Virus record (IMG/VR): IMGVR_UViG_3300009181_001959
Location: 1 to 54,525 of that record
Reading direction: 5' to 3' (one strand)
Origin: a virus
Length of the DNA: 54,525 nucleotides
Every line of letters begins with the position of its first letter. The first letter of the stretch is position 1. The notes under the pieces are model-generated. The model was not told where the DNA came from. It saw nothing but the letters and a program-made list of their open reading frames with translations, and searched no databases. Made by a program: the position numbers and the translations under genes. Positions 6,803 through 25,797 of this stretch are shown in pieces.

Positions 6803-7993
6803 ATGCTGACAATAGATAATATCCTACTAACTATCGAACAACACGGTATTGATAAACTAAATTCATCAGTGCCAGTTAAAGATCGCAGAATTTTAAAGAA
6901 TTTGGTGCGCATGATTCAAATGCCTGCCTTTATTACAGAGTCTCAAGGAAGATTACTAATAAAAATTTTACAAGAAAATATGGAAGCACTGGACTTTATA
7001 GGTAGTGAACTTATACCCAGTCTTAAAAATCCCAGCTGGTCTAGAAGTTTTAAAACTGTAGAGATTGTTAAACAAATATCAATAATTAAAAATTCAGCTG
7101 GAGAGTCTTTTATAGATATTGAATGTTCGTTTAATAAGGAGATAAAAAAATCCTTAACAACTATTACTAGAAATATTGAAGGATCAGCGTCTACTGTTAC
7201 TTTAGGTAGGCGTACGAGTTTTTTACTCACTGAAAAGAATTTGTATAACATAGTAAAAGAATTTGATAAACACAACTTTGACAAGTCTGAACAAGTAATA
7301 AAATTATACAACGACGTCTGCAGTTTAGATTTATCAGGAACAAAGAACTCACTTGACATTCATAAAACAACAAATGTTAAATTAAAAAATAGATTAATTA
7401 AAAATATTGGAGTCATTGATTCAACCAATATGCTATTATTAGAAGACAGAAAAATTGAATTTCAATATAATGTTAACAGTAATTTAGACGATAGCACACT
7501 GGCAAACAAAATAGCAAAACGAACAAACACTAAAATTTTTATTAACTCATCTGAGTATACACTACTTGATGTTGCACAAGCAATTAGACAATTAAGAAAA
7601 ATGCCAGCACTATGTATTTTTGACGAGTATGATGCCGGTGCGTCAGTTAAAAATTTAAAAATAGTAAAAACAGTTGTTGATGCAGTTGATCCAACAATAA
7701 ACGTAGGTGTATATTTTAGATTCAATAATGCTGGCGACGGCGAGCAATTTAATAAACTAATCAGTGAATACAGTTTCAATAAACAATTGGACAACAATAA
7801 TAGAGTGTCAGTTATAGCAAATGGAAAAATACCTAAATTCTTTTTAAAGTCTGATTGGTATCCTAAAACAGTGATTAGTTTTTCAAATCAATTTAGAAAT
7901 AATAAAACAAGTGTGTATTGCAATAGTTGCGATTTGATAGTATACTATACTAGTTCAAAACCAATGATAGGAACCGTAGATGTCATCGTGTAA
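6803..7993 (+). CDS. Uncharacterised protein encoded next to uvsW
   Basis: 396 aa, not recognised. The first 120 residues are helical, from LLTIEQHGIDKL onward. The C-terminal third has a beta-alpha pattern with ALCIFDEYDAG near residue 270, which resembles a Walker-B/DExx strand without a visible Walker A. It ends in a small C-x2-C pair (YCNSCD). It overlaps uvsW by 14 nt, so a link to recombination or helicase work is reasonable but unproven. It has its own early-type promoter, probably giving a leaderless message. Codon use is AT-rich like the neighbouring glycan genes. Confidence 0.65.
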   Translation: MLTIDNILLTIEQHGIDKLNSSVPVKDRRILKNLVRMIQMPAFITESQGRLLIKILQENMEALDFIGSELIPSLKNPSWSRSFKTVEIVKQISIIKNSAGESFIDIECSFNKEIKKSLTTITRNIEGSASTVTLGRRTSFLLTEKNLYNIVKEFDKHNFDKSEQVIKLYNDVCSLDLSGTKNSLDIHKTTNVKLKNRLIKNIGVIDSTNMLLLEDRKIEFQYNVNSNLDDSTLANKIAKRTNTKIFINSSEYTLLDVAQAIRQLRKMPALCIFDEYDAGASVKNLKIVKTVVDAVDPTINVGVYFRFNNAGDGEQFNKLISEYSFNKQLDNNNRVSVIANGKIPKFFLKSDWYPKTVISFSNQFRNNKTSVYCNSCDLIVYYTSSKPMIGTVDVIV

Positions 7994-9449
7994 GTTAATT
8001 ATTAAAGACGAAGTTAACATCAAGCTAGAAGGTCTTGAGCTTGAGGCACGACGTAAACTGGCAAATACATTCAAATATGAAATACCCCATGCAAGGTACC
8101 ACCCAGCATTCAAGTTGGGACGTTGGGATGGCATGACCAGTTTGTTTGGTATTGGGGGCAATGGATACCTAAATCAACTAGAAAAGATTATTGAAATACT
8201 CACTAACATGGGTATTGAGATCGCTGACGTAGAAGATTTAAGACAACCTGTTAAATTAACATTTGATGAAGTAACTGAAACATATTGGGCTGATCAAGGT
8301 AAAGTATGGCCCAAAGGTCATCAACAAGAAGGTCAACCAATTATGTTGCGTGACTATCAAGTTGACGCTGTTAATATATTTTTAAAGAATCCTCAAGCGT
8401 TACAAGAGATTGCTACTGGTGCTGGTAAAACAATTACCACTGCAACACTGAGTCAACTGTGCGAACAATATGGTCGTACTATTACTATTGTGCCCAACAA
8501 AAGTCTAGTTGAACAAACAGAAGAAGATTTTATTAATGTTGGCTTAGACGTTGGTGTTTACTACGGTGATCGTAAAGATTTAAATAAAACTCACACTATA
8601 TGTACATGGCAAAGTTTAAACATACTTGAAAAGAAAAGTAAGAATCACGAGCATGATATTTTAACACTTGCAGAGTTTTTAGATGGTGTACGCACAGTTA
8701 TAGTTGACGAAGTACACATGGCTAAAGCTGAAGTGTTAAAGAACTTGCTAACTAAAAATCTCAGCAATGCATGTATTCGTTGGGGGCTTACTGGTACTGT
8801 ACCTAAAGAAGCATTTGAAAGTGAAAGCATTTTTGCAAGCATTGGACCGGTAGTGGGCGGTATTAAAGCACATGAACTACAGGAAAAGGGTGTACTAAGT
8901 AACTGTCACGTTAACGTTGTACAGATGATTGACTTACCTGAGTTTAGAGATTATCAATCAGAATTAAAATATCTTGTTACTAATGATGAACGTATGGCTT
9001 ATATTAGTAACTTGATTAAACAGATATCCAACAGTGGCAATACTCTTGTATTAGTAAACAGAATTGATTCTGGAAAATTCTTAATTAATGAATTACCAGA
9101 TGCAGTATTTGTCAGTGGTGAGGTAAAGACCAAAGATAGAAAAGACGAATATGATGAAATTAAAACAAGCACTAACAAGATTATTGTGGCGACTTACGGT
9201 GTGGCCGCTGTTGGTATTAATATCCCAAGGATTTTTAATCTGGTTCTTCTTGAGCCCGGAAAGAGCTTTGTCAGGGTTATACAAAGTATTGGGCGAGGCA
9301 TTAGACGAGCAGAGGACAAAGACTTTGTCCAAATATGGGACGTTACCAGTACGTGTAAGTTTGCCAAACGGCACCTTACAGCAAGGAAGAAATTTTACAA
9401 GGAAGCCAAATATCCATTTACATTAGATAAAGTGGATTGGCAAAAATAA
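7980..9449 (+). CDS. uvsW: UvsW-type SF2 DNA/RNA helicase
   Basis: 489 aa, close to T4 UvsW (503 aa). The N-terminal DNA-binding domain is followed by a Q-like LRDYQ (133-137). Walker A is ATGAGKT (145-151), a VDEVH box follows (about 241), then GLTGT motif III, and QSIGRGIRRAED motif VI near residue 440. T4 UvsW regresses forks, processes recombination intermediates and removes R-loops to switch off origin-dependent replication. It starts inside the preceding gene. The 9456 gene follows after 6 nt with a good Shine-Dalgarno (TAAGGA), so they share a transcript. Confidence 0.93.
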   Translation: MSSCKLIIKDEVNIKLEGLELEARRKLANTFKYEIPHARYHPAFKLGRWDGMTSLFGIGGNGYLNQLEKIIEILTNMGIEIADVEDLRQPVKLTFDEVTETYWADQGKVWPKGHQQEGQPIMLRDYQVDAVNIFLKNPQALQEIATGAGKTITTATLSQLCEQYGRTITIVPNKSLVEQTEEDFINVGLDVGVYYGDRKDLNKTHTICTWQSLNILEKKSKNHEHDILTLAEFLDGVRTVIVDEVHMAKAEVLKNLLTKNLSNACIRWGLTGTVPKEAFESESIFASIGPVVGGIKAHELQEKGVLSNCHVNVVQMIDLPEFRDYQSELKYLVTNDERMAYISNLIKQISNSGNTLVLVNRIDSGKFLINELPDAVFVSGEVKTKDRKDEYDEIKTSTNKIIVATYGVAAVGINIPRIFNLVLLEPGKSFVRVIQSIGRGIRRAEDKDFVQIWDVTSTCKFAKRHLTARKKFYKEAKYPFTLDKVDWQK

Positions 9450-9971: not shown

Positions 9972-10175
9972 ATGGCAGATATAATTGATGATGCTCAAGA
10001 ATTTGAAGAGCGTAGAATAGCAGAGGCTTTGGCCAAAAGAATGAAAGTTCCAGAAAAAACTGGACTTTGTTTGGCCTGTGACGAACCAATCACACAGGGT
10101 GTATTTTGTGATTCAGATTGCAGAGAGTTTCATGAAAGAGCTGATCGCATTAGAGCAATAAGGGGACAAAAATGA
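9972..10175 (+). CDS. Small zinc-finger protein
   Basis: 67 aa. It has a C-x2-C pair (CLAC, about 33-36) and a C-x3-C pair (CDSDC, about 48-52), then a basic helix; the layout recalls DksA/TraR or similar small Zn-binding proteins. The N-terminal half is a charged helix. It is coupled to the next gene by an ATGA overlap. It may bind DNA or RNA polymerase; this is inferred only from the Zn-finger form. Confidence 0.6.
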   Translation: MADIIDDAQEFEERRIAEALAKRMKVPEKTGLCLACDEPITQGVFCDSDCREFHERADRIRAIRGQK

Positions 10176-10516
10176 AAGCAGGTAAAGTGTGGGGAGTAAC
10201 TGAACTCCTTGAAGCAAACGGTGTGCTGGAGTTTCATCGTATTGAAGCCCAAGCAGGCGGAACGTGTAGTAAACACACGCACAAATATAAATGGAATGGC
10301 TTCTTTGTTGAGAAGGGCAAAATGATTATTCGTGTTTGGAAGAACAATTATGATCTAGTGGACGAAACTGTATTGACTGCTGGGCAGTATACAAAGGTAG
10401 CTCCTGGAGAATATCATCAGTTTGAAGCCATTGAAGATTGTGTTGCATTTGAATTGTACTGGGCAGAGTTTGACCACAACGATATTGAAAGGGAAACAGT
10501 AGGGTTTGCTAAATGA
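10172..10516 (+). CDS. Cupin-fold protein
   Basis: 114 aa single-domain cupin. HTHKYKWNGFFVEKGKM (about 35-51) carries two metal-ligand histidines and the conserved Gly. The second cupin motif is VAPGEYHQFEA (about 77-87) with another His. It is related in form to the cupin half of the 1173 protein. Possible role: sugar isomerase/epimerase or a regulatory metal-binding protein. It overlaps both neighbours by 4 nt. Confidence 0.75.
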   Translation: MKAGKVWGVTELLEANGVLEFHRIEAQAGGTCSKHTHKYKWNGFFVEKGKMIIRVWKNNYDLVDETVLTAGQYTKVAPGEYHQFEAIEDCVAFELYWAEFDHNDIERETVGFAK

Positions 10517-11079
10517 CTATCGTTTTTTCATTTGTAGGTAGAAAACGTCCTATTGATGAATGGGATTTTCTATTTAATGAGTTAGGTTGTACTAATGTGT
10601 CTTTTAAAGACGATGATAACACTTGGTATTTGGATCCTAAATTTAAAAATCAAATACAAGATAAATTAGATAAACACGGCCCGCCTGATATTTCTTTTGG
10701 ACAAAGTATGGGCGGCTGGGCCGCATTGTATTACCAACCCCAAATACAAGCAAATCAAATTATAGCATTTAACCCCCAAGCTACAACAATATCTAAAGAG
10801 GTTGAAGACATTGGTGGTGTAAAAGCAGACCAGTGGGCAATTGATCTTGAGAATATAAATGGATGCCGCTTGCCGTCACCAGATGGTAGAGCAACTATAT
10901 ATTTTGGAAATCATAAAGAGGATGGCCACGGTGATCACGGGCACAGACTTATTATTGAATCTGCTGGATATAAAACAACTATACTAAACACAATTAAACC
11001 ATGGTCTCATAATATTATTGGAATATTGCATCATGAAGGCCGATTATTGGATATAATGCATCAACATATTAAGACATAA
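10513..11079 (+). CDS. Alpha/beta-hydrolase-like protein
   Basis: 188 aa with a nucleophile elbow, SFGQSMGGWAALYY (about 56-69), where GQSMGG fits G-x-S-x-G-G of small alpha/beta hydrolases. A late HGHRLIIES and IIGILHH supply candidate catalytic histidines. It could be an esterase or deacylase acting on the glycan made by its neighbours. It is coupled to both flanking genes by 1-4 nt overlaps. Confidence 0.6.
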   Translation: MTIVFSFVGRKRPIDEWDFLFNELGCTNVSFKDDDNTWYLDPKFKNQIQDKLDKHGPPDISFGQSMGGWAALYYQPQIQANQIIAFNPQATTISKEVEDIGGVKADQWAIDLENINGCRLPSPDGRATIYFGNHKEDGHGDHGHRLIIESAGYKTTILNTIKPWSHNIIGILHHEGRLLDIMHQHIKT

Positions 11080-11825
11080 TGGAAAATGTGATTAAGAAAT
11101 TAGATGGATTTTCTGGAAGTAAGGTTTATTTGATTGAAAATTCAACTCATCTATTTGTTAGAAAAATTAATAATGTTGATAGAAATTATGAACGACTAAC
11201 TGTTTTAAAGGAACAAGGATTTAAAGTACCAACAATTTATAGTAAAATAGATTGTCAATTAGATATGGAATACATCCATGGTTTGGATTTAAAAACTTAT
11301 TTAAAATCTAGAACCCCAGAGCACTTGATTAATTTTATTAAAGAAACTGTTAATAGATTGTCTACAAATTCTGTTGAAAAAGATTATACTGATGTTTACT
11401 ATTCAAACTTAAAAAATATTAAACTTCACCCATTGATTCCATTTTCAATAGATGAGTTGATTGATAGATTGCCTAAAAAATTGCCACAATCAATGTATCA
11501 CGGCGATTTTACATTAGAGAATATTATATATTCAGATCTTGATGACTTTTATCTTATTGATTGTGTAACTACCACATACGATTCTTGGGTGTTTGATATT
11601 GCTAAGATGCGACAAGATTTAGAATGTAAATGGTTTGTAAGAAAAGAACATTTAAAATTAGATGTTAAATTGGAATATATACAAAATAAAATTTTAGATG
11701 AATTCCCATTAGCAAACAATGACTATTTGCTAATTTTAATGTTGCTACGTGTTTGGAACTACACTATTCCAAAAACTAAAGAACAAAGATTTATTTTAGA
11801 GAATATAATAAAATTATGGAAATAA
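11079..11825 (+). CDS. Aminoglycoside/choline-kinase-like phosphotransferase
   Basis: 248 aa. Kinase hallmarks are a Brenner-type catalytic motif YHGDFTLENIIY (about 139-150; HGDFTLEN matches HGDxxxxN) and a metal-binding LIDCVTTTYDSWVFDIAKM (about 157-175; D corresponds to DFD/DFG). A P-loop-like FSGSKVYLI sits at the N-terminus. The next gene encodes a nucleotidyltransferase and the start overlaps by 10 nt. A kinase followed by an NTP-transferase is the usual order for activating a small alcohol or sugar, as in choline- or sugar-nucleotide pathways. Confidence 0.7.
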   Translation: MENVIKKLDGFSGSKVYLIENSTHLFVRKINNVDRNYERLTVLKEQGFKVPTIYSKIDCQLDMEYIHGLDLKTYLKSRTPEHLINFIKETVNRLSTNSVEKDYTDVYYSNLKNIKLHPLIPFSIDELIDRLPKKLPQSMYHGDFTLENIIYSDLDDFYLIDCVTTTYDSWVFDIAKMRQDLECKWFVRKEHLKLDVKLEYIQNKILDEFPLANNDYLLILMLLRVWNYTIPKTKEQRFILENIIKLWK

Positions 11826-12838
11826 TTATACCCGCCGCAGGATTATCTACAAGATTTCCTAATATGCGTCCCAAATATACGTTAACTGACTATACGGGAA
11901 AAATGATGATTGAAAAAAGTATTGAACCATTTTTAAATAATTATAATATAACTATTGGTATTTTAAGAGAACACGAAACTGCTTACAATATAACTCGTTA
12001 TTTAAATAATGAGTTTCCTAATATAAATGTTGTTATTTTAGAAGAACGTACAAACGGTCCAGCTGAGACTGTATATAAAATTATTAAACAATCTAAAATA
12101 GATTTATCATCTGGTATTTTAATTAAAGATTGCGATAGTTATTTTAATCATGATATAAGTGATGGTAATTATGTATGTATTTCTACTATTGCTGAACATG
12201 AAGTATTAAAAAGATTATCATCAAAAAGTTTTATTATTTCCAACGATCAAGGAATTATTACCAACATTATTGAAAAAGAAGTAATATCAAATAAATTTTG
12301 TGTTGGCGGTTACAAATTTGAATCTGCAAAATTATTTTGCAATACTTTTGAAAATTTACAACATAGAGATGTAGGAGAAATATTTGTCAGTCATATAATT
12401 GAAGACTGTTTAAATAATCACAAAATATTTTTAGAAAAACACGTAACAGATTATATTGACGTAGGGACTGCTGAAGAATGGTTTTTGTTTAATGATAAGT
12501 CTTGCATTTTCTGTGATATTGACGGAACAATAATTAAAGCACAACCTAAAGGCAGTTATGGAGATGATCCATCTCCATTAACTGAAAATATAAAAAGAAT
12601 AAAAGCCCTCATAGACTCAGGATCTACAATCATATTTACAACAGCACGACCTAAAAAATATGATGACAGAACTAAAGAAATATTAATGTCTTTAGGATTT
12701 AAAGATTTTAATTTAATCAGCGGATTGCCAAATAGCAAACGAGTATTAATTAACGACTTTAATGAGGCCAATCCTTACCCAAGAGCTATTGCTGTTAACA
12801 TAAAAAGGAATTCAGATAATTTAAAGGATTATTTATGA
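11816..12838 (+). CDS. NTP-transferase fused to HAD phosphatase
   Basis: 340 aa. Residues 1-225 are a sugar-phosphate nucleotidyltransferase: IIIPAAGLSTRF (3-14), then MRPKYTL (17-23). Residues 230-340 are a HAD-superfamily phosphatase: the nucleophile motif FCDIDGT (232-238), then IIFTTARPKKYDDRT, typical of capsule-biosynthesis phosphatases. The fusion would combine activation of a sugar or alcohol phosphate with removal of a phosphate. It sits between the kinase and the first WavE-like protein with 4-10 nt overlaps. Confidence 0.78.
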   Translation: MEIIIPAAGLSTRFPNMRPKYTLTDYTGKMMIEKSIEPFLNNYNITIGILREHETAYNITRYLNNEFPNINVVILEERTNGPAETVYKIIKQSKIDLSSGILIKDCDSYFNHDISDGNYVCISTIAEHEVLKRLSSKSFIISNDQGIITNIIEKEVISNKFCVGGYKFESAKLFCNTFENLQHRDVGEIFVSHIIEDCLNNHKIFLEKHVTDYIDVGTAEEWFLFNDKSCIFCDIDGTIIKAQPKGSYGDDPSPLTENIKRIKALIDSGSTIIFTTARPKKYDDRTKEILMSLGFKDFNLISGLPNSKRVLINDFNEANPYPRAIAVNIKRNSDNLKDYL

Positions 12839-13605
12839 TTGCACTAATTTATAACGGCGATGTTAGGTTTAATCAAAATGTAGTTAAACAAAATCATCAA
12901 ATACTTATAGATAGATTAAAAGATTTTGGTGAGGTTACAACATATAATTTTACAAAAAATGACCCTAATAGACCAGTTTGCCCATATGATGAGGGTGGTT
13001 TAGATACAGCAGATCAAGGAACATATCGTCGAGCAGCCGGTGGCGCTGTACAAGTATGGGATTTTATTCAAAGTGTTGAAAGAACAGTAGAGCCTATTAT
13101 CATTAGAATGAGAACTGATTCGTGGTTTACTGATGACAGTATTGAAATTATTATAAAAGAAATGCAGGATATTGTAGATAAAAAAGCAGGAGTTTATTTC
13201 TTTGGGTCAGATTTAATTAATGACAATGCTGGTAGAAAATATAAAAAAACATACTTGTCACATGTTGATGAGAACAATATAATACCAAACACTGTACAGG
13301 ATTTTATTATTATAGGACGTAGAGAATGTATTATTAGTTTAGAAAAAATAAATGCAAAACTATCACAATTGAATGGAAATAAATTGCGAAGCGGTAATAA
13401 ATTATTTCGATGGGTTGTTGTTCAAAATAGTATTGCCGCAACAGTAATTTGCAATATATTTTTAATTAGAAAACATTTTAATTTATATCCTACAGATATA
13501 GAAATATATTGGGAATATATAAACAGTTATAATAACGGTAAAAAGCCAGATTTAATAGATCCAGCACTTGCGTATTATCATTCTTGGAAAGAGACTATCA
13601 AATGA
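12835..13605 (+). CDS. WavE-like glycan biosynthesis protein, copy 1
   Basis: 256 aa. It starts IALIYNGDVRFNQNVVKQNH and has an IIIRMRTDSWFTDDSIE segment (about 88-104). That arginine/aspartate block resembles the R-x-D signature of WavE-type LPS proteins. It is paralogous to the next gene (same MIA-IY start, same RTD-WFTDD block, same YNFTK element). Proteins of this type are found in surface-polysaccharide loci. The precise reaction is unknown; a glycosyltransferase is the usual guess. Confidence 0.6.
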   Translation: MIALIYNGDVRFNQNVVKQNHQILIDRLKDFGEVTTYNFTKNDPNRPVCPYDEGGLDTADQGTYRRAAGGAVQVWDFIQSVERTVEPIIIRMRTDSWFTDDSIEIIIKEMQDIVDKKAGVYFFGSDLINDNAGRKYKKTYLSHVDENNIIPNTVQDFIIIGRRECIISLEKINAKLSQLNGNKLRSGNKLFRWVVVQNSIAATVICNIFLIRKHFNLYPTDIEIYWEYINSYNNGKKPDLIDPALAYYHSWKETIK

Positions 13606-14312
13606 TTGCAATCATTTACACAGGGTTTGATCGTTTTAGAGATGTTGTGCAATCAACGCATGACCGATTGTTTGATAGTTTAAGAGCTATAGACGAAATA
13701 CAAATATATAATTTTACCAAACCTAATAAAGATAGGCCGTTTTGCAAATACGACAAGCACGATGCACGTGGCGCAATTCAGTTATTTGATTTGATATGGG
13801 CGATTGATTCTATACCTGAAACATTTTTTATAAAAATTAGAACTGATATTTGGTTCACTGACGACGCAATAAAAGCAATTGTTGACGAGTTTCATAAAGT
13901 TAAAATGGGTGAGCAAGATATGTCTTTATTGGGCTGGCATTTTCATAGCTGGGATTTTAACCAACCTTATGGAAAAATGTCTGCGGCAGAAGCAGGAAAG
14001 CACACGCAGGATTTTGTTGTAATTGCTAAAAAAGAAACAATAGATACAACAGAAAATATCTTTGAAAAAATGGATATCAGAGAAAAGAGTGGAATTAGCG
14101 GACTATACACTGGAAATAACGTTATTAGATATATCATAAAAAATCTTAACAATGCATATACTGTTAAAACTCATATGTATCTAATTAGGGACGGCATAAC
14201 TACTAACAGTAATATTGATGAAATTGTTGCCGCGTATATGGCATCATACGGTGGCAAAGGCAAAGCTCACCCGTATCGAGATTGGTATAAAGCAAAACGA
14301 GGAATAAAATGA
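13602..14312 (+). CDS. WavE-like glycan biosynthesis protein, copy 2
   Basis: About 236 aa from the ATG at 13602, which overlaps the preceding stop as ATGA; an in-frame ATG at 13584 is less likely. It shares FFIKIRTDIWFTDDAIKAI and YNFTKPNKDRPFCKYD with its neighbour at 12835, so the pair arose by tandem duplication. Probable role in glycan assembly. Confidence 0.6.
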   Translation: MIAIIYTGFDRFRDVVQSTHDRLFDSLRAIDEIQIYNFTKPNKDRPFCKYDKHDARGAIQLFDLIWAIDSIPETFFIKIRTDIWFTDDAIKAIVDEFHKVKMGEQDMSLLGWHFHSWDFNQPYGKMSAAEAGKHTQDFVVIAKKETIDTTENIFEKMDIREKSGISGLYTGNNVIRYIIKNLNNAYTVKTHMYLIRDGITTNSNIDEIVAAYMASYGGKGKAHPYRDWYKAKRGIK

Positions 14313-14869
14313 CAACACTAATTAATGATGAATATAAGAAACAACTTCAAGAAATGCATCAAAAACCTAAAATGTTTTATAGAGGAACAAAGGTAGCATC
14401 AAAACTTGAAGATTTTCTTAAAACATATAATCCATCAAGTCTAATAGACTTTGGATGCGGCAAGGGTGATTTGCACAAACTATTAGGTGAAACGATCCCT
14501 AAAGTAACAGGATATGACCCTGGTATGCCTGAGTTTGAAAATTTACCTAACGATACTTATGAAGTATTAGTATCAACAGACGTATTAGAACATATTGAAC
14601 CAGAAATGATAGATGAAACACTTAAAGCAATTAATAATCTTTTTACAAAATCTTGTTATCTTTTAATTGCCAGTTATCCTGCTAAAAAGCATTTGCCAGA
14701 CGGCCGAAACGCTCATTTAATAATTGAAAGTTTTGATTGGTGGAAAAATAAATTAGAAACGTTTGTCAACGGAAAAATTGTTTATACAGTCAACACTCCT
14801 GTAGTAAAGACACCTAAAAGAGGTCCGTCATTACATGGACATGAATATATCTTTGTTATAGAAAAATGA
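14309..14869 (+). CDS. Class I SAM-dependent methyltransferase
   Basis: 186 aa. Motif I is LIDFGCGKGDLHKLLG (about 44-59). The acidic residue after strand 2 is in GYDPG (about 68), and VLVSTDVLEHI (about 87-97) corresponds to motif IV of UbiE/small-molecule methyltransferases. The substrate is unknown. It overlaps both neighbours by 4 nt and is paired with a second methyltransferase. Confidence 0.8.
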   Translation: MTTLINDEYKKQLQEMHQKPKMFYRGTKVASKLEDFLKTYNPSSLIDFGCGKGDLHKLLGETIPKVTGYDPGMPEFENLPNDTYEVLVSTDVLEHIEPEMIDETLKAINNLFTKSCYLLIASYPAKKHLPDGRNAHLIIESFDWWKNKLETFVNGKIVYTVNTPVVKTPKRGPSLHGHEYIFVIEK

Positions 14870-15543
14870 AATCAAACTACTACGACAAATCCGTACAACT
14901 TGGTACAGAGTTTCAAAAAAATAATCCTAAGAATTGGGCAGGATATGATGTGGTCAAGTATCAAGATCAAATCAAAGATCTAGTACAAAGATACAACGCT
15001 AAGACTATACTAGACTACGGTTGTGGTAAAGGGTTGCAATACACTGAAAAATTACCTTGGGGCATGGTCAACGGTGTTGAACTGCCCGTAGATCAATGGA
15101 CTACCTTTGACGAATGGCTAGGTGTTGAGGTATACAAGTACGATCCCTGTGTTCCAGGATTAGATGTACCGCCACCTGACAATATGAAGTTTGATGGTGT
15201 TATATGTACACAAGTGCTACAAACTATTCCAGATGCTGATATACCATGGGTATCACAAAAACTATTATCACATACTAACAAGTTTTGTTTTGTCAGTTTA
15301 AATTTCCAAAATGTTGCAAAAAAGAAAAAGTTCTTTTATGATCCTGAATTATTTAAAGAGCCACGTACAAGAGAGTTTTTTAAACAGTATTTTGCAAATT
15401 GGCCAAAGGAAAAATTATTTTGGTGGTGGAAAGATCGTATGCATTACACAGGATGGATTGATGATCAACTAACTGGCACTTGGACTGACTTACCAAAAGA
15501 ATGGGTTGGCAAGTATGCATACGTTGAAAGTATATACGGATAA
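14866..15543 (+). CDS. Class I SAM-dependent methyltransferase
   Basis: 225 aa. Motif I is ILDYGCGKGLQY (about 46-57), followed by DGVICTQVLQTIPDADIPWV (about 109-128). The C-terminus is rich in aromatic and basic residues. It resembles the preceding methyltransferase only in motif I. Likely a small-molecule or sugar methyltransferase that closes the glycan island. Confidence 0.75.
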   Translation: MKSNYYDKSVQLGTEFQKNNPKNWAGYDVVKYQDQIKDLVQRYNAKTILDYGCGKGLQYTEKLPWGMVNGVELPVDQWTTFDEWLGVEVYKYDPCVPGLDVPPPDNMKFDGVICTQVLQTIPDADIPWVSQKLLSHTNKFCFVSLNFQNVAKKKKFFYDPELFKEPRTREFFKQYFANWPKEKLFWWWKDRMHYTGWIDDQLTGTWTDLPKEWVGKYAYVESIYG

Positions 15544-15831: not shown

Positions 15832-16292
15832 GTAAGTTAGCACTAAAAGATATATTGGAAGCAGTGGATCAAGGCGGCAGAGATCTTTGGGATTTGTTTG
15901 ATGAAGAACAAAAGAAAGATGTGAAATTCTTCTTGCTTAATAGATATGTTAGTAGTGTAAGGACCAGCAACAGAGAAGTACAAGAACACTTTGTATTGGC
16001 CACAAATGAATATTTTAACAAGCATTGGAACTTGTTGTACAAACATCCAAAGCTGTTGTGGCAACTGCTGTGTTGCTGTGGTTATGAAAACAAACAGGCA
16101 TACTTTCATGAATGGATTGGCAATAAAAAGAAAGCTGGCGAAGGTAAAAAATTAAAACTACTACAAGAGATGTATCCCAGTAGAAAGATGGATGAATTAG
16201 AAATGCTAGCAGATATGATGACTACCAAAGAGCTAAAACATCTAGCAGAAGAACAATGTTGGGACGATAAAAAAATTGATAAGTTTTTCTAA
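15828..16292 (+). CDS. Possible clamp-loader small subunit (gp62-like)
   Basis: 154 aa, helical. The pattern VKFFLLNRYVSSVRT (about 29-43), then LATNEYFNKHWNLLYKHPKL (about 55-74) resembles, to my eye, gp62-type small clamp-loader subunits of T4-like phages, which act with gp44 to load the sliding clamp. A gp44 gene is not in the window, so this call is tentative. It is coupled to both neighbours and sits upstream of a polymerase-like gene, primase and helicase, which favours a replication role. Confidence 0.35.
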   Translation: MSKLALKDILEAVDQGGRDLWDLFDEEQKKDVKFFLLNRYVSSVRTSNREVQEHFVLATNEYFNKHWNLLYKHPKLLWQLLCCCGYENKQAYFHEWIGNKKKAGEGKKLKLLQEMYPSRKMDELEMLADMMTTKELKHLAEEQCWDDKKIDKFF

Positions 16293-16990
16293 TGTTACAG
16301 TTAAAAGTGATTGATCAACCATACATTTGTGAACACTGCAAAAGTAAATTCTCTAAAGAAAAAACTTTAGTTGTGCATATGTGTGAACAAAAGCGTAGGC
16401 ATCTTGCCAAAGGTGAGAAACATGTTCAAATTGGATATCAAGCATATGTTAGGTTTTATCAAATAGCACAAAAGCAAGATAAGATTAAAACATATGATGA
16501 ATTTGCACACAGCTCTTACTACAATGCATTTGTTAAGTTTGGTAGCTTTGTTAGTAATGTCAATCCCCTATACCCAGATCAATACATTGACTATGTTGTT
16601 AAAAGCGGAGTTAGATTGGATCATTGGTGCAGAGATGGATTGTATGAACAATATGTGTTGCATTTGATTAAAACAGAAAGTGTTGAGACTGCTCTACAAA
16701 GAAGCATTGGCCACATGATGGAATGGGCAGACAATAACAACAGCGTGTGGCATCACTATTTTAATTATGTAAGTGTCAATAGAGCAGTATTTGATGTTAA
16801 GGATGGAAAGGTAAGTCCTTGGTTGTTGTTAAACTGTAGCTCAGGAAAGAAATTGTTATCCAACTTCAGTGATGAACAATTGGCAGCGATAAGTACAATG
16901 ATTGATCCGCCATATTGGATCAAGCAGTTTAAGAAGTTAAGTGACGATGTAGACTTAGTTAGGCAAGTTGCCAAGGAGTCAAACCTATGA
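16292..16990 (+). CDS. Zn-finger protein of the replication block
   Basis: 232 aa. The N-terminus has a C2H2/C2HC-like finger: YICEHCKSKFSKEKTLVVHM followed by C (about 10-30). The rest is helical with many aromatic residues and no assignable motif. Its start abuts the preceding stop and its end overlaps the next start as ATGA. It is a candidate DNA-binding partner of the replication proteins. Confidence 0.65.
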   Translation: MLQLKVIDQPYICEHCKSKFSKEKTLVVHMCEQKRRHLAKGEKHVQIGYQAYVRFYQIAQKQDKIKTYDEFAHSSYYNAFVKFGSFVSNVNPLYPDQYIDYVVKSGVRLDHWCRDGLYEQYVLHLIKTESVETALQRSIGHMMEWADNNNSVWHHYFNYVSVNRAVFDVKDGKVSPWLLLNCSSGKKLLSNFSDEQLAAISTMIDPPYWIKQFKKLSDDVDLVRQVAKESNL

Positions 16991-17157
16991 GTCCAGAACC
17001 AGTTCCACTAAACATGGAAGTAATAGTAAGTGAAGAAGACCTAGCAGTATATGTAAAGTTTACAGGATTTGATGATGTAGATTTTGCCAAGCAATGGGCA
17101 GATAGAATGGTAGATGAGTTACCATTAAAACTTTTTGAGTCAGAGATAAAACACTAA
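16987..17157 (+). CDS. Small acidic protein between the Zn-finger and mini-DnaE genes
   Basis: 56 aa, read directly from the sequence: it starts MSPEPVPLNMEVIVSEEDL and ends LPLKLFESEIKH. The start overlaps the previous stop (ATGA) and the stop overlaps the next start (TAATG). This perfect coupling on both sides is the main evidence that it is real. It is probably translated in step with the mini-DnaE protein. Confidence 0.7.
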   Translation: MSPEPVPLNMEVIVSEEDLAVYVKFTGFDDVDFAKQWADRMVDELPLKLFESEIKH

Positions 17158-17735
17158 TGCCAGATATTGATATTGACTTTGCTGATAGAGATCTTGCTCT
17201 TAATAAACTAGAGCACGTTAAGGCCATGCGGCTTGCAGACTCGAGCCCAGTTGCACATGCCACAGGCATTTATGCACATCGTATTCCCTATGATCCCGTT
17301 AACAACATTGCGGGTATTGATTATAAAACAGCAGAAGATCGAGGTTATTTTAAAATAGACTTTTTAAATGTTGGTGTGTATGAACATGTACGAGATGAAG
17401 CGCATTTGATAAAACTTATGGAGACAGAACCATTATGGGATCTACTACAGGACGACAGTTTTACGAGTTTGTTGTTTCACATAAACGGGTATGGAGACTT
17501 GCTACGCAAGCAGAAGCCAACGAGTATCTTAGAACTGGCCGTGTGCCTAGCTTTGATCCGCCCAGGCAAGCGATACCTACAAGAGATGACGAAGATAGAT
17601 ATTATGGAACAGATATGGGAGAAACCAACGACTGGTGAGTACCATTTTAAGAAGAGTCATGCTGTGGCCTATGCCACAGCCATAGTGGTGCAGATGAATC
17701 AGATCTGTGAAAGCGTCAGTTACGGGTATAGTTAA
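17157..17735 (+). CDS. Minimal DnaE/PolC-like (family C) polymerase palm protein
   Basis: 192 aa, against about 1,160 aa for E. coli Pol III alpha. Collinear matches to the alpha catalytic core are visible. PDIDIDF (2-8) aligns with PDFDVDF, which holds the first two catalytic Asp. HATGIYAHRI (34-43) aligns with the HAGGVVI region and YFKIDFLNV (64-72) with the KFDFLGL strand holding the third Asp. FHINGYGDLL (107-116), LALIRPGKRY (131-140) and FKKSHAVAYA (164-173) follow in order. All three catalytic aspartates (D5, D7, D68) appear kept, while the PHP, thumb, fingers extensions, beta-binding and OB domains are missing. The start overlaps the previous stop. Function unknown; see findings. Confidence 0.8.
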   Translation: MPDIDIDFADRDLALNKLEHVKAMRLADSSPVAHATGIYAHRIPYDPVNNIAGIDYKTAEDRGYFKIDFLNVGVYEHVRDEAHLIKLMETEPLWDLLQDDSFTSLLFHINGYGDLLRKQKPTSILELAVCLALIRPGKRYLQEMTKIDIMEQIWEKPTTGEYHFKKSHAVAYATAIVVQMNQICESVSYGYS

Positions 17736-18103
17736 CGTTTGCGTACCAGTTGAACGCTTTTTCGTTTGATGCGTCTAACTGATAAGTTTAGTAAATTAAC
17801 AACTGGTCCCAGTAATATACGCACATCTTTACTGTTAAAAGTCTTAATACAGTATCGAAAAGGTTCTATTTCACGGCGAAGAAATATGTTTATTGGGATT
17901 TGTCTGTTACTTTCCCACCACCATGTTTCACCTATTTCTAAAAATATGGTCTTTTCATCAGGCGTTTTAATAGCATCAATGTCGTAAAAGCTGGTCACGT
18001 ATTGATCCTGATTTATAATGATACCGACGTACTCTAACTCCCCGTAGTTAATGACGCTAATAAAGGGTAATTGTTGTTCTGTGGTCTGTCTTAGTTTAAC
18101 CAT
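17732..18103 (-). CDS. Conserved T4-like phage protein
   Basis: About 123 aa using the ATG at 18103; the open frame continues upstream. It begins VKLRQTTEQQLPFISVINYG, has the conserved ETWWWESNRQIPINIFL block (about 64-80), and ends with a basic RRIKRKSVQLVRKR tail. I recognise the pattern from marine T4-like phages but not a function. Its start codon is overlapped by the TATAAATA motif of the divergent gene. It runs tail to tail into the mini-DnaE gene with a 4-nt overlap. Confidence 0.7.
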   Translation of the reverse strand: MVKLRQTTEQQLPFISVINYGELEYVGIIINQDQYVTSFYDIDAIKTPDEKTIFLEIGETWWWESNRQIPINIFLRREIEPFRYCIKTFNSKDVRILLGPVVNLLNLSVRRIKRKSVQLVRKR

Positions 18104-18110
18104 ATAAATA
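18103..18110 (+). promoter_or_regulatory. Late promoter motif TATAAATA
   Basis: An exact octamer that begins on the start codon of the opposite gene (17732-18103). It precedes a Shine-Dalgarno TTGAGG (18115-18120) and the ATG at 18127, so this late gene would have a short conventional leader. Confidence 0.65.
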
Positions 18111-18126
18111 TATGTTGAGGCTTCCA

Positions 18127-18960
18127 ATGCAAAAAATTTCAAGTTATTTATATTCAAATCGAATCCAACTCATGGCAGATGTGATAGTGTTGGACTCGGC
18201 CTACCCTGTGGAGTGGAAAATTGTGTACCAAAGACCAATAAAAATTTATAAAGGCGTGGACAACGTCATTGAACTAGATGTTAAGAACGCTGATCAAAAG
18301 CGCATAGACATTTACGGTAAGACAATCAAATTTGTAGTCATGGATCAAACTGATAAAGAAGTTAACACATACACTGCCACTGTGCTGGATGATGGCAGTA
18401 GTATAGGTGTTAAGGGGTTGGCCAAGGTAACGATCAGCGCCGCAGACACAACTGCATTGCAAGCACAGTATTTGAAGTTTAGTGTGTACATGCTCAACAG
18501 CAACTCAACCAAGACACTACTATATGGTGACTCAAGGTTTGGCGCACACGGCACACTTGAACTACTTGGTGGAGTGTTGCCAGTAACACGACCAATACAA
18601 CGTTACGATGACTTCCAACAAGAAACAAACTATCAGGGATTGGCCATATCAGATAGGATCATAACACACTACAGTAGCGCAATACCAGTTAAATATTATG
18701 AAGCAGTGCCAACTACCACTGTTGATGTATCTGTATCGGTAACTGGCTTTATTGGTTCCGTTACTATTCAAGCAACCAAAAATATTGTAACCGGACATGA
18801 AGCGTTCCTACATCCAATAACGATTCAAACTCAAACATTTACTACAGCTAGAAGTACTCCGGTGTTGTTTACCGACATTGATATAACTGACTACACTTAC
18901 ATACGAGTTAGTTACATCAAGACAACCGGAACTGTTGACTTTTTCACTGTAGCCAGTTAA
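18127..18960 (+). CDS. Probable virion structural protein
   Basis: About 277 aa. The ATG at 18127 follows TTGAGG by 6 nt; the ATG at 18112 is too close to the late promoter to be transcribed. An ATG at 18172 is another candidate start. The sequence is beta-rich, with IKIYKGVDNVIELDVKNADQ and KTIKFVVMDQTDKE typical of beta-sandwich tail or baseplate-type phage proteins (BppU-N-like layout). A late promoter supports a structural role. It lies between the mini-DnaE and primase genes. Confidence 0.6.
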   Translation: MQKISSYLYSNRIQLMADVIVLDSAYPVEWKIVYQRPIKIYKGVDNVIELDVKNADQKRIDIYGKTIKFVVMDQTDKEVNTYTATVLDDGSSIGVKGLAKVTISAADTTALQAQYLKFSVYMLNSNSTKTLLYGDSRFGAHGTLELLGGVLPVTRPIQRYDDFQQETNYQGLAISDRIITHYSSAIPVKYYEAVPTTTVDVSVSVTGFIGSVTIQATKNIVTGHEAFLHPITIQTQTFTTARSTPVLFTDIDITDYTYIRVSYIKTTGTVDFFTVAS

Positions 18961-18970: not shown

Positions 18971-19966
18971 ATGAGCCTTATCGCTGACACACTACTAGCC
19001 TACTTACCTCCCAAGCGAAAATACACCCCTAGTGGGTGGATTAGTTTCAATGCGCCTTGTTGTGTACACAATGGCAATAACATTGACAAGCGTATGCGTG
19101 GTGGCTTTATTGTGAATGGTGGCGATGCTGTCAGTTATCATTGCTTTAACTGTGGATTCAAAAGCAGTTGGCAACCTGGAAGATTGGTTGGACCAAAACT
19201 TAAGAATCTAATGCGTTGGCTCAGTATCCCCGACGATCTCATTAACAAAATGGTATTTGATGCCATGCGTGTTAAAGAAGATTCTGAATTGGGAAGTAAA
19301 CTACAACTGGTACCCACATTCACTCCTAGAGCATTGCCCTTAAACAGTGAACCCATTGAACATTGGTTAGAAGGCAAAGTGAACAAACATCTAATGCCCG
19401 TGTTGGAATATATCAACAGTAGAGCATTATACTTGGAAGATTATCCATTTTATTGGAGCAATGATCTAGGATTTAGAAGTAGGCTCATAGTTCCGTTTTA
19501 TCATAACAAACAAATTGTGGGTTGGACTGCCCGTAGTGTTAATGGACAGACGCCCAAGTATCTAAGTGAGCAACAGCCTGGCTATGTGTTTAACCTAGAT
19601 AGACAGCACTGGGATCGCAAGTATGTTATAGTGTGTGAAGGACCGTTTGATGCTATCAGCATTGACGGAGTGGCCTTATTGGGCAGTGAGATCAAGCAGG
19701 GTCAACACTTGCTGATCAATCAACTACAGAGACAGATCATACTGGTTCCAGACAGGGATGCCGCTGGAGAGAAGACTGTGGAACAGGCAATTGAATTTGG
19801 GTGGAGCGTGAGTTTCCCACCGTGGCCCGAAGACGTTAAAGACGTTAATGATGCTGTCAGGATCTTAGGAAGACCAGCTACACTGTGGCTAATTATTAAC
19901 TCCGCAGTACAAACAGAACTTAAAATTAAATTACAATCAAGAAACTGGTTTAGGAAAGAACAATGA
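18971..19966 (+). CDS. gp61: DNA primase (gp61 type)
   Basis: 331 aa, close to T4 gp61 (342 aa). The N-terminal Zn-binding domain has C30/C31 and CFNCG (58-62). The TOPRIM core has VCEGPFDAISID (221-232, catalytic Glu 223) and VPDRDAAGEKT (259-269, the DxD pair). It lays down RNA primers for lagging-strand synthesis and works in a complex with the gp41 helicase, whose gene overlaps by ATGA. TAAGG upstream of the ATG serves as the ribosome site. Confidence 0.9.
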   Translation: MSLIADTLLAYLPPKRKYTPSGWISFNAPCCVHNGNNIDKRMRGGFIVNGGDAVSYHCFNCGFKSSWQPGRLVGPKLKNLMRWLSIPDDLINKMVFDAMRVKEDSELGSKLQLVPTFTPRALPLNSEPIEHWLEGKVNKHLMPVLEYINSRALYLEDYPFYWSNDLGFRSRLIVPFYHNKQIVGWTARSVNGQTPKYLSEQQPGYVFNLDRQHWDRKYVIVCEGPFDAISIDGVALLGSEIKQGQHLLINQLQRQIILVPDRDAAGEKTVEQAIEFGWSVSFPPWPEDVKDVNDAVRILGRPATLWLIINSAVQTELKIKLQSRNWFRKEQ

Positions 19967-21381
19967 AACAAAATGTAGATTACGGATATGATGTACAGCG
20001 TATATATTTGGAAATGATGTTGGCAGATGCACAGACCTATGTGCGTTGCCAAAGCATCTTTGACCCCACGCTGTTTGATAGAAAGCTACAAAAGTCTGCA
20101 GAGTTTCTGCAACACTATGTAAGCGAACACAATGTATTACCCACTCCAGATATTATTAACGCAACAACTGGCAGTGACTTTAAAACAATCACGGACATGC
20201 GTGAAGAACACTTTGATTGGCTCTTGGGAGACTTTGAAACTTTTATTAGACACAAGGGTCTTGAACGTGCCATTCTTGAAAGTGCAGACTTGTTGGAGAA
20301 GGGTGAGTATGGTCCAGTAGAAGAAAAGATCAAACAGGCAGTACAAATTGGCTTACAAAAAGACATGGGCACTGATTACTTTTTGGATCCGCGGGCACGT
20401 TTGATGAGGATCAAAGATAAGAATGGACAAGTGAGTACAGGTTGGAAAAGCGTTGACGACAAACTGTTTGGCGGAATGAACAGAGGCGAGCTTAACATCT
20501 TTGCAGGCGGATCGGGAGCAGGTAAGAGTTTGTTCCTGGCCAATCTAGGCTGTAACTGGGCGTTAGCCGGACTCAATGTGATATATCTAACATTGGAACT
20601 GAGTGAAGAACTTGTTAGTATGCGTGTGGACAGTATGCTTACTGGAATCCCCACTAGAGAGATTTTTAAAAGCATTGACGATGTTGAAATGAAAGTGCGG
20701 GTGATTGGCAAGAAGAGTGGACACTTCCAAGTCAAATACATGCCCAGTGGTAAGACTGCAAACGATGTACGTGCTTACTTGAAAGAATATGAAATCAAAA
20801 TGGGACACCGGGTAGATGTGCTGTTAGTGGACTACTTGGACTTGTTGATGCCAATCTCTAAGAAGATTAGTCCAGCAGACTTGTTTATCAAGGACAAGTA
20901 TGTAAGTGAAGAACTGCGTAACCTAGCAGTGGAAAAGAACTGTGTGTTTGTCACAGCGGCACAATTGAACCGTGGTGCTGTTGAAGAAGTAGAGTTTGAT
21001 CACAGCCACATATCGGGTGGACTCTCTAAGATCCAAACTGCGGACAATGTGTTTGGTATCTTTACATCGAGAGCCATGCGTGAGCGGGGACGTTATCAAA
21101 TACAACTAATGAAAACTCGTAGCAGTAGCGGTGTTGGTATGAAGATTGATTTGGAATTTGATTTGGACAGTTTGCGTATTAGAGACTTGGATGAAAGTGA
21201 AGATGTCAACGGCGCTGCCACTAGACCAGGTAGCAGTATGTTGGACACAATCAGACAACGACAGAGCACAGTGACTCCAGCGGCATTAGAAGACGGTGTC
21301 AATGCTCCAAAGATTACGGCACAGGTTGAAAGTACAAAACTTAGACAGTTACTCAACAACATGGGATCTGATGATATATAA
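19963..21381 (+). CDS. gp41: Replicative DNA helicase (gp41, DnaB family)
   Basis: 472 aa, equal in length class to T4 gp41 (475 aa). The N-terminal helical domain is followed by a RecA-like ATPase: GWKSVDDKLFGGMNRGEL (160-177), Walker A GGSGAGKS (182-189), YLTLELSEE, Walker B DVLLVDYLDLL (about 283-293), and AAQLNRG near residue 326. The C-terminal 60 residues form a low-complexity tail that may hold the primase or loader contact. It is a hexameric 5'-3' helicase of the phage fork. Confidence 0.93.
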   Translation: MKQNVDYGYDVQRIYLEMMLADAQTYVRCQSIFDPTLFDRKLQKSAEFLQHYVSEHNVLPTPDIINATTGSDFKTITDMREEHFDWLLGDFETFIRHKGLERAILESADLLEKGEYGPVEEKIKQAVQIGLQKDMGTDYFLDPRARLMRIKDKNGQVSTGWKSVDDKLFGGMNRGELNIFAGGSGAGKSLFLANLGCNWALAGLNVIYLTLELSEELVSMRVDSMLTGIPTREIFKSIDDVEMKVRVIGKKSGHFQVKYMPSGKTANDVRAYLKEYEIKMGHRVDVLLVDYLDLLMPISKKISPADLFIKDKYVSEELRNLAVEKNCVFVTAAQLNRGAVEEVEFDHSHISGGLSKIQTADNVFGIFTSRAMRERGRYQIQLMKTRSSSGVGMKIDLEFDLDSLRIRDLDESEDVNGAATRPGSSMLDTIRQRQSTVTPAALEDGVNAPKITAQVESTKLRQLLNNMGSDDI

Positions 21382-23943: not shown

Positions 23944-24153
23944 TGCCGAAAGGGTCCTGCAGGGTAAAAAATATTGTACGCAAAAAATAGTGTACAAGTA
24001 CTTAGAGATCGGGTGGGGGGTTTTAGCACATATGGGACGTTTTTAGCGGGGGATTTTAAGACGTTTGCGCTGTTGTTTTTTCGCAACAGTTTTGTTTGTA
24101 TAGCCCCCGACCCCTATAATCTTTTCTTAATTATATTCTCCACCACCAAAAAG

Positions 24154-24176
24154 AATCCGGCCATTGAGACCGGATT
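24154..24176 (-). terminator. Rho-independent terminator closing the 24-36 kb leftward array
   Basis: Inverted repeat AATCCGG / CCGGATT with a 9-nt loop. On the minus strand the stem is followed by CTTTTTGG. It sits 20 nt past the stop of the last leftward gene of the array. The surrounding 23944-24195 holds no gene I can support. Confidence 0.7.
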
Positions 24177-24195
24177 GTTCTTTATCGTTCAGCTG

Positions 24196-24516
24196 TTAGT
24201 CTAGTCGACTGCAACCATATGCCTTCAGGCCTAATGCTGTGAGGTATGTGGCGTAGGCATCTGCGCCAGCTTCCTTTACGCTAATGCTCTGCGTGGGCAC
24301 GCCAGCTGGATCCCACATGGTCAAGCACTTGGGCTTGTAGTCCTTGCGGAAGCCTGCGGCAATCAGCTCTTTAGCCTGAGCACTGTTAGTGCGGTCCACG
24401 TAGACCTCTACCCAACCAAAGCCGCAAGCATCGCGCTCGCCTATGCGTTGATACATGGCCAAGCCTGCTTGCTCTGCAATGGCCTTACCGCTACGGATCT
24501 GTTCTGCTGTAATCAT
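24196..24516 (-). CDS. Conserved small early protein
   Basis: 106 aa, starting ITAEQIRSGKAIAEQAGLAM. It contains EVYVDRTNSAQAKELIAAGF, then RKDYKPKCLTMWDPAG. I recall this kind of pattern in phage early regions but no function. GGAGCGATAG precedes the ATG, and its own sigma-70 promoter lies at 24547-24575. Confidence 0.75.
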   Translation of the reverse strand: MITAEQIRSGKAIAEQAGLAMYQRIGERDACGFGWVEVYVDRTNSAQAKELIAAGFRKDYKPKCLTMWDPAGVPTQSISVKEAGADAYATYLTALGLKAYGCSRLD

Positions 24517-24546
24517 CTATCGCTCCTTTTGTTTAACTTAGCCTAT

Positions 24547-24575
24547 AGTATAGCACCGTCTTGCCAATATGTCAA
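24547..24575 (-). promoter_or_regulatory. Early promoter TTGACA-17-TATACT
   Basis: Member of the repeated leftward promoter family: -35 at 24570-24575, -10 at 24547-24552, followed by the common leader (AGGCTAAGTTAAACAAAAGGAG) that supplies the Shine-Dalgarno of the 24196 gene. The -35 overlaps the stop of the next upstream gene. Confidence 0.85.
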
Positions 24576-24826
24576 CTCAATACCACTACACGGCGTAGGG
24601 TTTCATCAACAACTTCGTTGCCCTCATCATCGAACTCTGTGTCGCCATCATCCTCTAGCATCTTGTCCATACGGTGATACTCACTGTAGACCACCGCGCC
24701 GTTATCCACACGGCTCAACTTGGGAGCCACTTCTGTGCGCCAGTGGTCGCCATAGTTATAGGCAAAGTGTACGTCTGACTCAGGGTTCATGTCCTGCAAC
24801 ATTTCTATCAGTTCTTTAACTTGCAT
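24572..24826 (-). CDS. Conserved small protein
   Basis: 84 aa. It starts QVKELIEMLQDMNPESDVHF, followed by AYNYGDHWRTEVAP and YHRMDKMLED. I recall similar small proteins from phages and bacteria; function unknown. The C-terminal part is acidic and then basic. Its stop lies inside the promoter of the following gene. Confidence 0.75.
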   Translation of the reverse strand: MQVKELIEMLQDMNPESDVHFAYNYGDHWRTEVAPKLSRVDNGAVVYSEYHRMDKMLEDDGDTEFDDEGNEVVDETLRRVVVLS

Positions 24827-24856
24827 CGCTCTCTCCTTTTGTTTAACTTAACTTAC

Positions 24857-24885
24857 AGTATAACATCACTCAACCAATTTGTCAA
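24857..24885 (-). promoter_or_regulatory. Early promoter TTGACA-17-TATACT
   Basis: -35 at 24880-24885 and -10 at 24857-24862, serving the 24572 gene. It overlaps the end of the 24882 gene. Confidence 0.85.
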
Positions 24886-25076
24886 CTGACATCTACTACC
24901 CATTGTAGGCAATTGTTGTAAAGATTGTACTCGGCTCTGAGGCTATCGCCGGGGAAGAACGGGTTGCTTACTATAGCATATGGAGCATCATCTGCATCCA
25001 TCTTGAAGCTGTGAACATCCACTTCCCACATGCCTAGGTCCTGTGCTATACCGCTGTCGATAAAGTGTACGTTCAT
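24882..25076 (-). CDS. Small hypothetical protein
   Basis: 64 aa, starting NVHFIDSGIAQDLGMWEVDV. It is acidic with NPFFPGDSLRAEYNLYNNC near the end. Coupled to the upstream gene by ATGA. Its stop TGA is part of the -35 box TTGACA of the next gene. Confidence 0.7.
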   Translation of the reverse strand: MNVHFIDSGIAQDLGMWEVDVHSFKMDADDAPYAIVSNPFFPGDSLRAEYNLYNNCLQWVVDVS

Positions 25077-25447
25077 ACCCAGCTCTCCACCACGGTAACA
25101 GGCTTCTTCAAGACTCGTTTCACAAAGTCTTCGGGCTCGTCATCACAGCGTACCAGCACGAATCCCATGCTCTCTACCAAGTCCACCTCGCAGACCTGTA
25201 GGTCAATGCCACCAGCTTCAAACGCCACATTCATCTTGCTCAGTGCATACTTGACGCCTGCTTGGAAGGCCTCGTACTCGTTTGCACCCGTTTCATCAAA
25301 GTCGAACTCTGTTTGCATAATGTGCGCAAACTCTTGTCCATCTGCTACAATGAACTTGTTGATCTTTTTCCAGTTGGATTGCTTCTCGCTGTCAAAGTGG
25401 TCACAGCATTCGTTGATATCAAATGAGGCAAAGTTATCGTAGTTCAT
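25073..25447 (-). CDS. Hypothetical early protein
   Basis: 124 aa, acidic. It starts NYDNFASFDINECCDHFDSE, with a middle helix EYEAFQAGVKYALSKMNVAF. Function unknown. It has no promoter of its own and is read from the one at 25763, after the 25457 gene. GGAGCAATT precedes the ATG. Confidence 0.7.
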   Translation of the reverse strand: MNYDNFASFDINECCDHFDSEKQSNWKKINKFIVADGQEFAHIMQTEFDFDETGANEYEAFQAGVKYALSKMNVAFEAGGIDLQVCEVDLVESMGFVLVRCDDEPEDFVKRVLKKPVTVVESWV

Positions 25448-25791: not shown

Positions 25792-25797
25792 CCGATA

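What the first reader, a model, noticed from the sequence alone, without database searches (positions are those of the whole stretch)
17157..17735. A 192-residue mini-DnaE that keeps all three catalytic aspartates
The protein matches Pol III alpha in order over six palm motifs, with D5 and D7 (PDIDIDF) and D68 (KIDFLNV) retained, yet it is about one-sixth of the normal length. The thumb, PHP, beta-clip and OB parts are gone. T4-type phages normally rely on a family B polymerase (gp43). A stand-alone family C palm, translationally coupled to a Zn-finger gene and a 56-aa gene and close to primase and helicase, could be a minimal nucleotidyltransferase, a decoy for the host replisome, or a fragment used as a clamp-loader partner.
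Basis: partly seen in the sequence, partly recalled or inferred. Interest (0 to 1): 0.9.

Follow-up and report, generated by a model that had tools for sequence, protein, structure and literature searches.

The report
Catalytic half of split phage polymerase
The small gene is real and encodes the metal-binding half of a stripped-down bacterial-type DNA polymerase that large T4-related phages carry as two separate proteins next to their ordinary polymerase; this family was described in 2021, but I found no report of what it does.

Summary
The three catalytic aspartates are kept, but they are D3, D5 and D68 (E. coli D401, D403, D555), not D5, D7 and D68. The interpretation needs a major correction: this is not a self-sufficient palm. 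It lacks the first part of the palm, with the GRGS nucleotide-binding motif. In relatives that part is a second protein (phrog_11127, about 168 aa) ending at E. coli alpha residue 393; this protein starts at 399. All seven isolate phages tested carry both halves on the same strand, 11-224 kb apart, plus a family B polymerase, and no PHP domain. No fused form was seen. Partner and family B polymerase are not in this 54.5-kb fragment. Iyer et al. 2021 (PMC7824862) already described this split minimal Pol III in group 2.2 jumbo phages. Best reading: the catalytic subunit of a thumb-less two-chain family C nucleotidyltransferase, probably an accessory or gap-filling polymerase. Assembly and activity are untested.

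The parts
17157..17735 (+). C-terminal (Mg2+- and template-binding) half of the split minimal Pol III alpha, 192 aa, phrog_11778
17157..17180 (+). MPDIDIDF motif: D3, D5 = E. coli alpha D401, D403 (catalytic), D7 = D405
17352..17366 (+). KIDFL motif (residues 66-70): K66, D68 = E. coli alpha K553, D555 (D555 catalytic)
17475..17570 (+). fingers segment from LFHINGYGDLL to LALIRPGK (about residues 107-138, = E. coli about 608-642)
17640..17675 (+). fingers segment YHFKKSHAVAYA (residues 162-173, = E. coli about 754-765)
16292..16990 (+). gene with a C2H2-like zinc-finger motif (232 aa, phrog_11058) just upstream; found upstream in 115 of 124 related loci; candidate partner, function unknown
16987..17157 (+). 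56-aa gene between the Zn-finger gene and the mini-DnaE, overlapping both at start/stop; recognisable in 42 of 127 loci
17732..18157 (-). convergent gene (141 aa, phrog_11637) overlapping the 3' end of the mini-DnaE by 4 nt; found in 97 of 120 related loci; function unknown
18971..19966 (+). DNA primase (phrog_47), conserved downstream neighbour (97 of 98 loci)
19963..21381 (+). DnaB-like replicative helicase (phrog_19), conserved downstream neighbour (41 of 41 loci)
7980..9449 (+). UvsW-type helicase (phrog_16), conserved upstream neighbour (41 of 44 loci)

Best explanation
The protein is the catalytic (metal- and template-binding) subunit of a two-chain, thumb-less family C nucleotidyltransferase of T4-related large phages. 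SHOWN by computation: it corresponds to E. coli alpha from M399 to about 421, about 510-642 and about 752-775, with the thumb (about 90 residues) and the middle of the fingers (about 110 residues) deleted. A second protein found in relatives (phrog_11127) corresponds to alpha 274-393 and supplies the GRGS motif; the cut lies just upstream of the first catalytic aspartate. INFERRED: the two chains associate without a covalent link and rebuild the palm; the C-half binds two metal ions through D3, D5 and D68 and holds the template with its finger helices, while the N-half's GRGS loop binds the incoming triphosphate. Lying beside primase, helicase and UvsW in genomes that have a family B replicase, and lacking PHP and thumb, it most likely works as a low-processivity accessory polymerase (gap filling, lagging strand, or recombination-linked synthesis) rather than the main replicase.
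For: Family: phrog_11778 and phrog_405; only Pol III alpha among significant fold matches of the C-half (best E 2.9e-4, probability 1.00; first unrelated fold at E 1.6); Pol III alpha also fills the top 12 for the N-half, with weaker E-values from 0.003. Partner: PF07733 matched over its cut-off at positions 11-98 in all six isolate phages and four large contigs, while the C-half of one contig matches 86-115 of the same model (weak, E 0.005). N-half ends at E. coli 392/393, C-half begins at 399. Columns of the GRGSS motif are invariant in the 52-row N-half alignment. Co-occurrence: 7 of 7 isolate genomes and 7 large contigs carry both halves, same strand in all 14; family B polymerase in all isolates; no PHP domain in 16 of 16 records. 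No fused ORF among 167 C-half and 167 N-half loci. Purifying selection, dN/dS 0.02-0.18. Conserved replication neighbourhood. Published independently by Iyer et al. 2021.
Against: No complex was modelled and no activity is known. The thumb that grips primer-template DNA in Pol III is missing, so processive synthesis is unlikely. The window holds neither the N-half nor a family B polymerase; as a 54.5-kb fragment this is uninformative, but the partner was not seen in this virus. Pairwise sequence similarity to cellular DnaE is weak. Co-occurrence and shared strand among related phages are not independent evidence of interaction.
Confidence: 0.72

Rival explanations
1. The two halves rebuild a nucleotidyltransferase that does something other than template-directed DNA synthesis, for example end-tailing, priming, or nucleotidylation of DNA, RNA or protein.
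For: Catalytic residues are conserved while the thumb and much of the fingers are gone; the genomes already have a family B replicase.
Against: Finger segments corresponding to the RPG and FNKSH regions of Pol III are retained and conserved; the gene lies in the replication core.
Confidence: 0.15
2. The C-half is a non-catalytic module: a decoy that engages host replisome parts, or a structural partner of the phage clamp loader or helicase.
For: It lacks the GRGS part of the active site, which is encoded apart from it.
Against: The catalytic aspartates and K66 are invariant over homologues down to about 41% identity; the parts of alpha that bind clamp, tau and epsilon (C-terminal region, PHP; established knowledge) are exactly those missing; the partner half is present in every isolate tested.
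Confidence: 0.08
3. The protein is a decaying remnant of a full-length phage DnaE.
For: About one-sixth the length of DnaE.
Against: Near-constant length (179-213 aa apart from one short ORF) and start point over 167 loci, dN/dS 0.02-0.18, hundreds of contigs and 91 phage records.
Confidence: 0.01
4. Chance similarity: an unrelated phage protein with a PDIDIDF stretch.
For: Single-sequence matches to cellular DnaE are marginal.
Against: phrog_405 E 1.5e-9; fold searches return only Pol III alpha above noise.
Confidence: 0.01

Closest known systems
Split minimal DNA polymerase III alpha of group 2.2 jumbo phages (Iyer et al. 2021, PMC7824862); PHROG 11778 (C-half) and PHROG 11127 (N-half)
   Same: Same protein family, same split into an N-terminal NTP-binding and a C-terminal Mg2+/template-binding chain, distant genes, family B polymerase in the same genomes.
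   Different: Nothing found that sets the window's gene apart. It is an uncultivated member whose own N-half lies outside the fragment or was not seen.
Cellular DnaE (Pol III alpha, family C), E. coli
   Same: D401, D403, D555, K553 and the HAGG, RPG and FNKSH regions all have counterparts; same fold in the model.
   Different: No PHP, thumb, middle fingers, clamp-binding, OB or tau-binding parts; palm broken into two proteins between residues 393 and 399.
Pectobacterium phage CBB_328 and Agrobacterium phage Atu_ph07 gp316 ('DNA polymerase III alpha subunit', PMC5259590, PMC6102473)
   Same: Annotated pieces of the same enzyme in the same phage group; CBB_328 was noted in 2017 as truncated (172 aa).
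   Different: By size and position these appear to be the N-half; the C-halves of these phages were deposited as hypothetical or membrane proteins.
Palm-plus-fingers minimal family X polymerase of a giant virus (discussed in PMC11646218)
   Same: Precedent for a thumb-less nucleotidyltransferase-fold polymerase.
   Different: Different family (X), one chain; functional analogy only.

Membership tests
Split minimal Pol III alpha of group 2.2 jumbo phages (PHROG 11778 + 11127) | C-half protein of about 190 aa starting at the PDIDIDF motif | tested here: met
   phrog_11778 E 5.4e-61 over residues 3-186; starts MPDIDIDF, 192 aa
Split minimal Pol III alpha of group 2.2 jumbo phages (PHROG 11778 + 11127) | N-half with GRGS motif encoded elsewhere in the same genome | tested here: inconclusive
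   Not in the 54.5-kb fragment; present in 7 of 7 isolate genomes and in large contigs with close C-half relatives
Split minimal Pol III alpha of group 2.2 jumbo phages (PHROG 11778 + 11127) | Family B polymerase in the same genome | tested here: inconclusive
   Not in the fragment; present in all isolates and all large relatives tested
Split minimal Pol III alpha of group 2.2 jumbo phages (PHROG 11778 + 11127) | Replication neighbourhood UvsW - Zn finger - mini-DnaE - convergent gene - primase - DnaB | tested here: met
Family C DNA polymerase (DnaE/PolC) | Three catalytic aspartates (E. coli D401, D403, D555) | tested here: met
   D3, D5, D68; invariant in homologues
Family C DNA polymerase (DnaE/PolC) | Pol III alpha palm fold | tested here: met
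   AlphaFold2 pLDDT 91, Foldseek top 14 all Pol III alpha; the palm is incomplete in this chain
Family C DNA polymerase (DnaE/PolC) | GRGS nucleotide-binding motif in the same chain | tested here: not met
   Absent here; in the separate N-half of relatives
Family C DNA polymerase (DnaE/PolC) | PHP domain | tested here: not met
   Not in this protein; no PF02811 match in 16 related genomes or contigs, 14 of 14 control genomes positive
Family C DNA polymerase (DnaE/PolC) | Thumb domain between D403 and D555 | tested here: not met
   63 positions from D5 to D68 against 152 in E. coli
Family C DNA polymerase (DnaE/PolC) | DNA polymerase activity | not testable with these tools
   No biochemical report found in the papers searched

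The most novel reading that the evidence does not exclude
The two proteins form an active DNA polymerase of about 360 residues in all, the smallest family C enzyme, whose palm is assembled from two separately encoded chains, and the thumb-less two-chain form is not a reduction of cellular DnaE but close to its ancestor (a view raised by Iyer et al. 2021). My data neither support nor exclude the ancestral part.
Probability: 0.08. Interest if true: 0.85.

Novelty: new member of a known kind. Interest (0 to 1): 0.4.

Why it matters
If the pair is active, it shows how little of a bacterial replicase is needed for catalysis and that its active site can be shared between two unlinked proteins. It would also mean that a broad group of phages runs family B and family C enzymes side by side. 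Practically, one half is often annotated 'DNA polymerase III alpha' and the other 'hypothetical' or 'membrane protein', so the pair is overlooked in many phage records.

Tried and rejected
Intein or trans-splicing at the split: the N-half stops at EFLR (or FLK/FLN) and the C-half starts at MPD with no extra sequence, so joining by splicing is not supported. Fused versions: none among 334 loci. Partner inside the window: none. Conserved C-terminal tail (ICE..SYG[FY]S) as a clamp-binding peptide: the family B polymerases of related contigs end in a different motif (TF..LF), so no support. Full-length DnaE elsewhere in the same genomes: no PHP and no finger domain above cut-off. Remnant or pseudogene: rejected by conservation and dN/dS. 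Global hhalign of the C-half against a single E. coli DnaE gave a meaningless alignment; only the local stretches were used, and their probabilities are low by themselves. I did not attempt a tree with cellular DnaE: so few and so divergent alignable residues would not tell ancestral from derived.

Full report
OBSERVATION. The ORF at 17157-17735 (+) encodes 192 residues beginning MPDIDIDF. Pfam and PDB sequence searches are marginal (E 0.013 and 0.018). An AlphaFold2 model from 49 homologues has mean pLDDT 91. Its 14 best PDB matches are all Pol III alpha (best E 2.9e-4, probability 1.00), with the first unrelated fold at E 1.6; the best viral fold matches include several DnaE-type polymerases.

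RESIDUES. Against E. coli alpha (sequence from the K-12 genome), the window protein's M1 is M399, D3/D5/D7 are D401/D403/D405, K66/D68 are K553/D555, HATG matches the HAGG region at 511, and FKKSH matches FNKSH at 756-760. That D401, D403 and D555 are the catalytic aspartates of alpha, and the domain names used here, are established knowledge from memory. From D5 to D68 there are 63 positions against 152 in E. coli, so the thumb is gone; about 110 residues of the fingers (about 642-752) are gone too. D3, D5 and D7 are present in all 48 aligned homologues that contain that stretch (one row starts later), and K66, D68, H34, G37, R135, P136, K138, F164, H168 and Y172 in all 49.

THE MISSING HALF. 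The palm before M399, including the GRGS motif, is absent. Searching related genomes with PF07733 found a second small protein matching model positions 11-98, over the curated cut-off, in all six isolate phages then tested and in four large contigs. It is phrog_11127, about 168 aa. Its GRGSS columns are invariant in the 52-row alignment, though the more distant Atu_ph07 protein reads GRGSC. Its model has pLDDT 93.9 and its best PDB fold matches are again Pol III alpha, with weaker E-values from 0.003. It aligns to E. coli alpha 274-393 and ends there, in most members with EFLR. The cut is thus between residues 393 and 399, five residues lost, just before the first catalytic aspartate. None of 167 C-half or 167 N-half loci shows a fused gene.

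CO-OCCURRENCE. With profiles of both halves, 7 of 7 isolate genomes (Atu_ph07, Paride, 121Q, Phosso, SCTP-2, Vibrio phage 2.275.O and Slicko01; the Vibrio record is partial) and 7 large contigs have both. All 14 have them on the same strand. Record distances in the isolates run from 11 kb (Slicko01) to 224 kb (Phosso). A family B polymerase is present in all seven isolates and in every contig over 180 kb that was tested and that holds both halves. The PHP domain is in none of 16 records, with 14 of 14 controls positive. Fragments may hold one half only: a 212-kb contig has the N-half and no C-half, a 199-kb contig the C-half and no N-half; both are unclosed records, so this does not test the rule. 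The window (54.5 kb) holds neither the N-half nor a family B polymerase.

CONTEXT AND SELECTION. Among non-redundant related loci with enough flank, the Zn-finger gene lies upstream in 115 of 124, the convergent gene downstream in 97 of 120, primase in 97 of 98, DnaB helicase in 41 of 41 and UvsW in 41 of 44; isolate phages show the same general order. The 56-aa gene is recognisable in 42 of 127. dN/dS is 0.18 between the window and its 96%-identical relative and 0.02-0.14 among other pairs; several of the latter have near-saturated synonymous sites, so they are rough. Hundreds of IMG/VR contigs and 91 phage records carry the family.

WHAT IS KNOWN. Iyer et al. [quoted passage not shown] They suggested that the two chains rebuild an enzyme, perhaps for one strand or repair, and that it may resemble an ancestral state. 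Earlier genome papers noted a truncated Pol III alpha, by size the N-half (PMC5259590, PMC6102473). I found no biochemical study in the papers searched, which cover only part of the literature. What this work adds: the exact split site, the residue map, structural models of each half, tested co-occurrence with strand and distance, the absence of PHP and of fused forms, a selection estimate, and a 141-kb complete phage (Slicko01) that carries the pair although it is not jumbo-sized.

MECHANISM. Best supported: a non-covalent two-chain palm, with metal-binding aspartates and template fingers in this protein and the triphosphate-binding loop in the partner, working as a low-processivity accessory polymerase next to the family B replicase. 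Shown: homology, residue conservation, split site, co-occurrence, purifying selection. Inferred: association of the chains, catalysis, and role. A thumb-less palm-plus-fingers polymerase of another family has been described (PMC11646218), so the architecture has a precedent.

VERDICT.

Noticed in passing
window 24515-35855: About 15 copies of a 40-63-nt intergenic cassette which on the minus strand reads TTGACA-17 bp-TATACT followed by an AAAGGAG-like ribosome site, before successive small minus-strand genes: it looks like an array of strong sigma-70-type early promoters.
   Followed up: partly
window 9972-15543: Between UvsW and the mini-DnaE the window carries about 5 kb of extra genes (cupin-like, kinase-like, nucleotidyltransferase-like and methyltransferase-like ORFs); in relatives UvsW lies a median of 2.8 kb from the mini-DnaE.
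   Followed up: no
L343 (Alishewanella phage Slicko01, 141 kb, complete): Both polymerase halves and a family B polymerase in a complete genome well under 200 kb, with the halves only 11 kb apart: the system is not confined to jumbo phages.
   Followed up: partly
window 17732-18157: A convergent minus-strand gene (phrog_11637) overlaps the 3' end of the mini-DnaE by 4 nt, and a convergent relative is kept in 97 of 120 related loci; function unknown.
   Followed up: partly
phrog_13169 (463 aa) and phrog_7513 (461 aa), matched by the N-half: The N-half matches these families close to their C-terminal ends (409 of 463, 442 of 461), which suggests that other phages may have family C polymerases broken near the same place while keeping upstream domains.
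   Followed up: no
window 24000-36000: G+C rises from about 31-38% in the first 18 kb to 47-49%, with GC and AT skew reversed in line with the switch to minus-strand genes.
   Followed up: no
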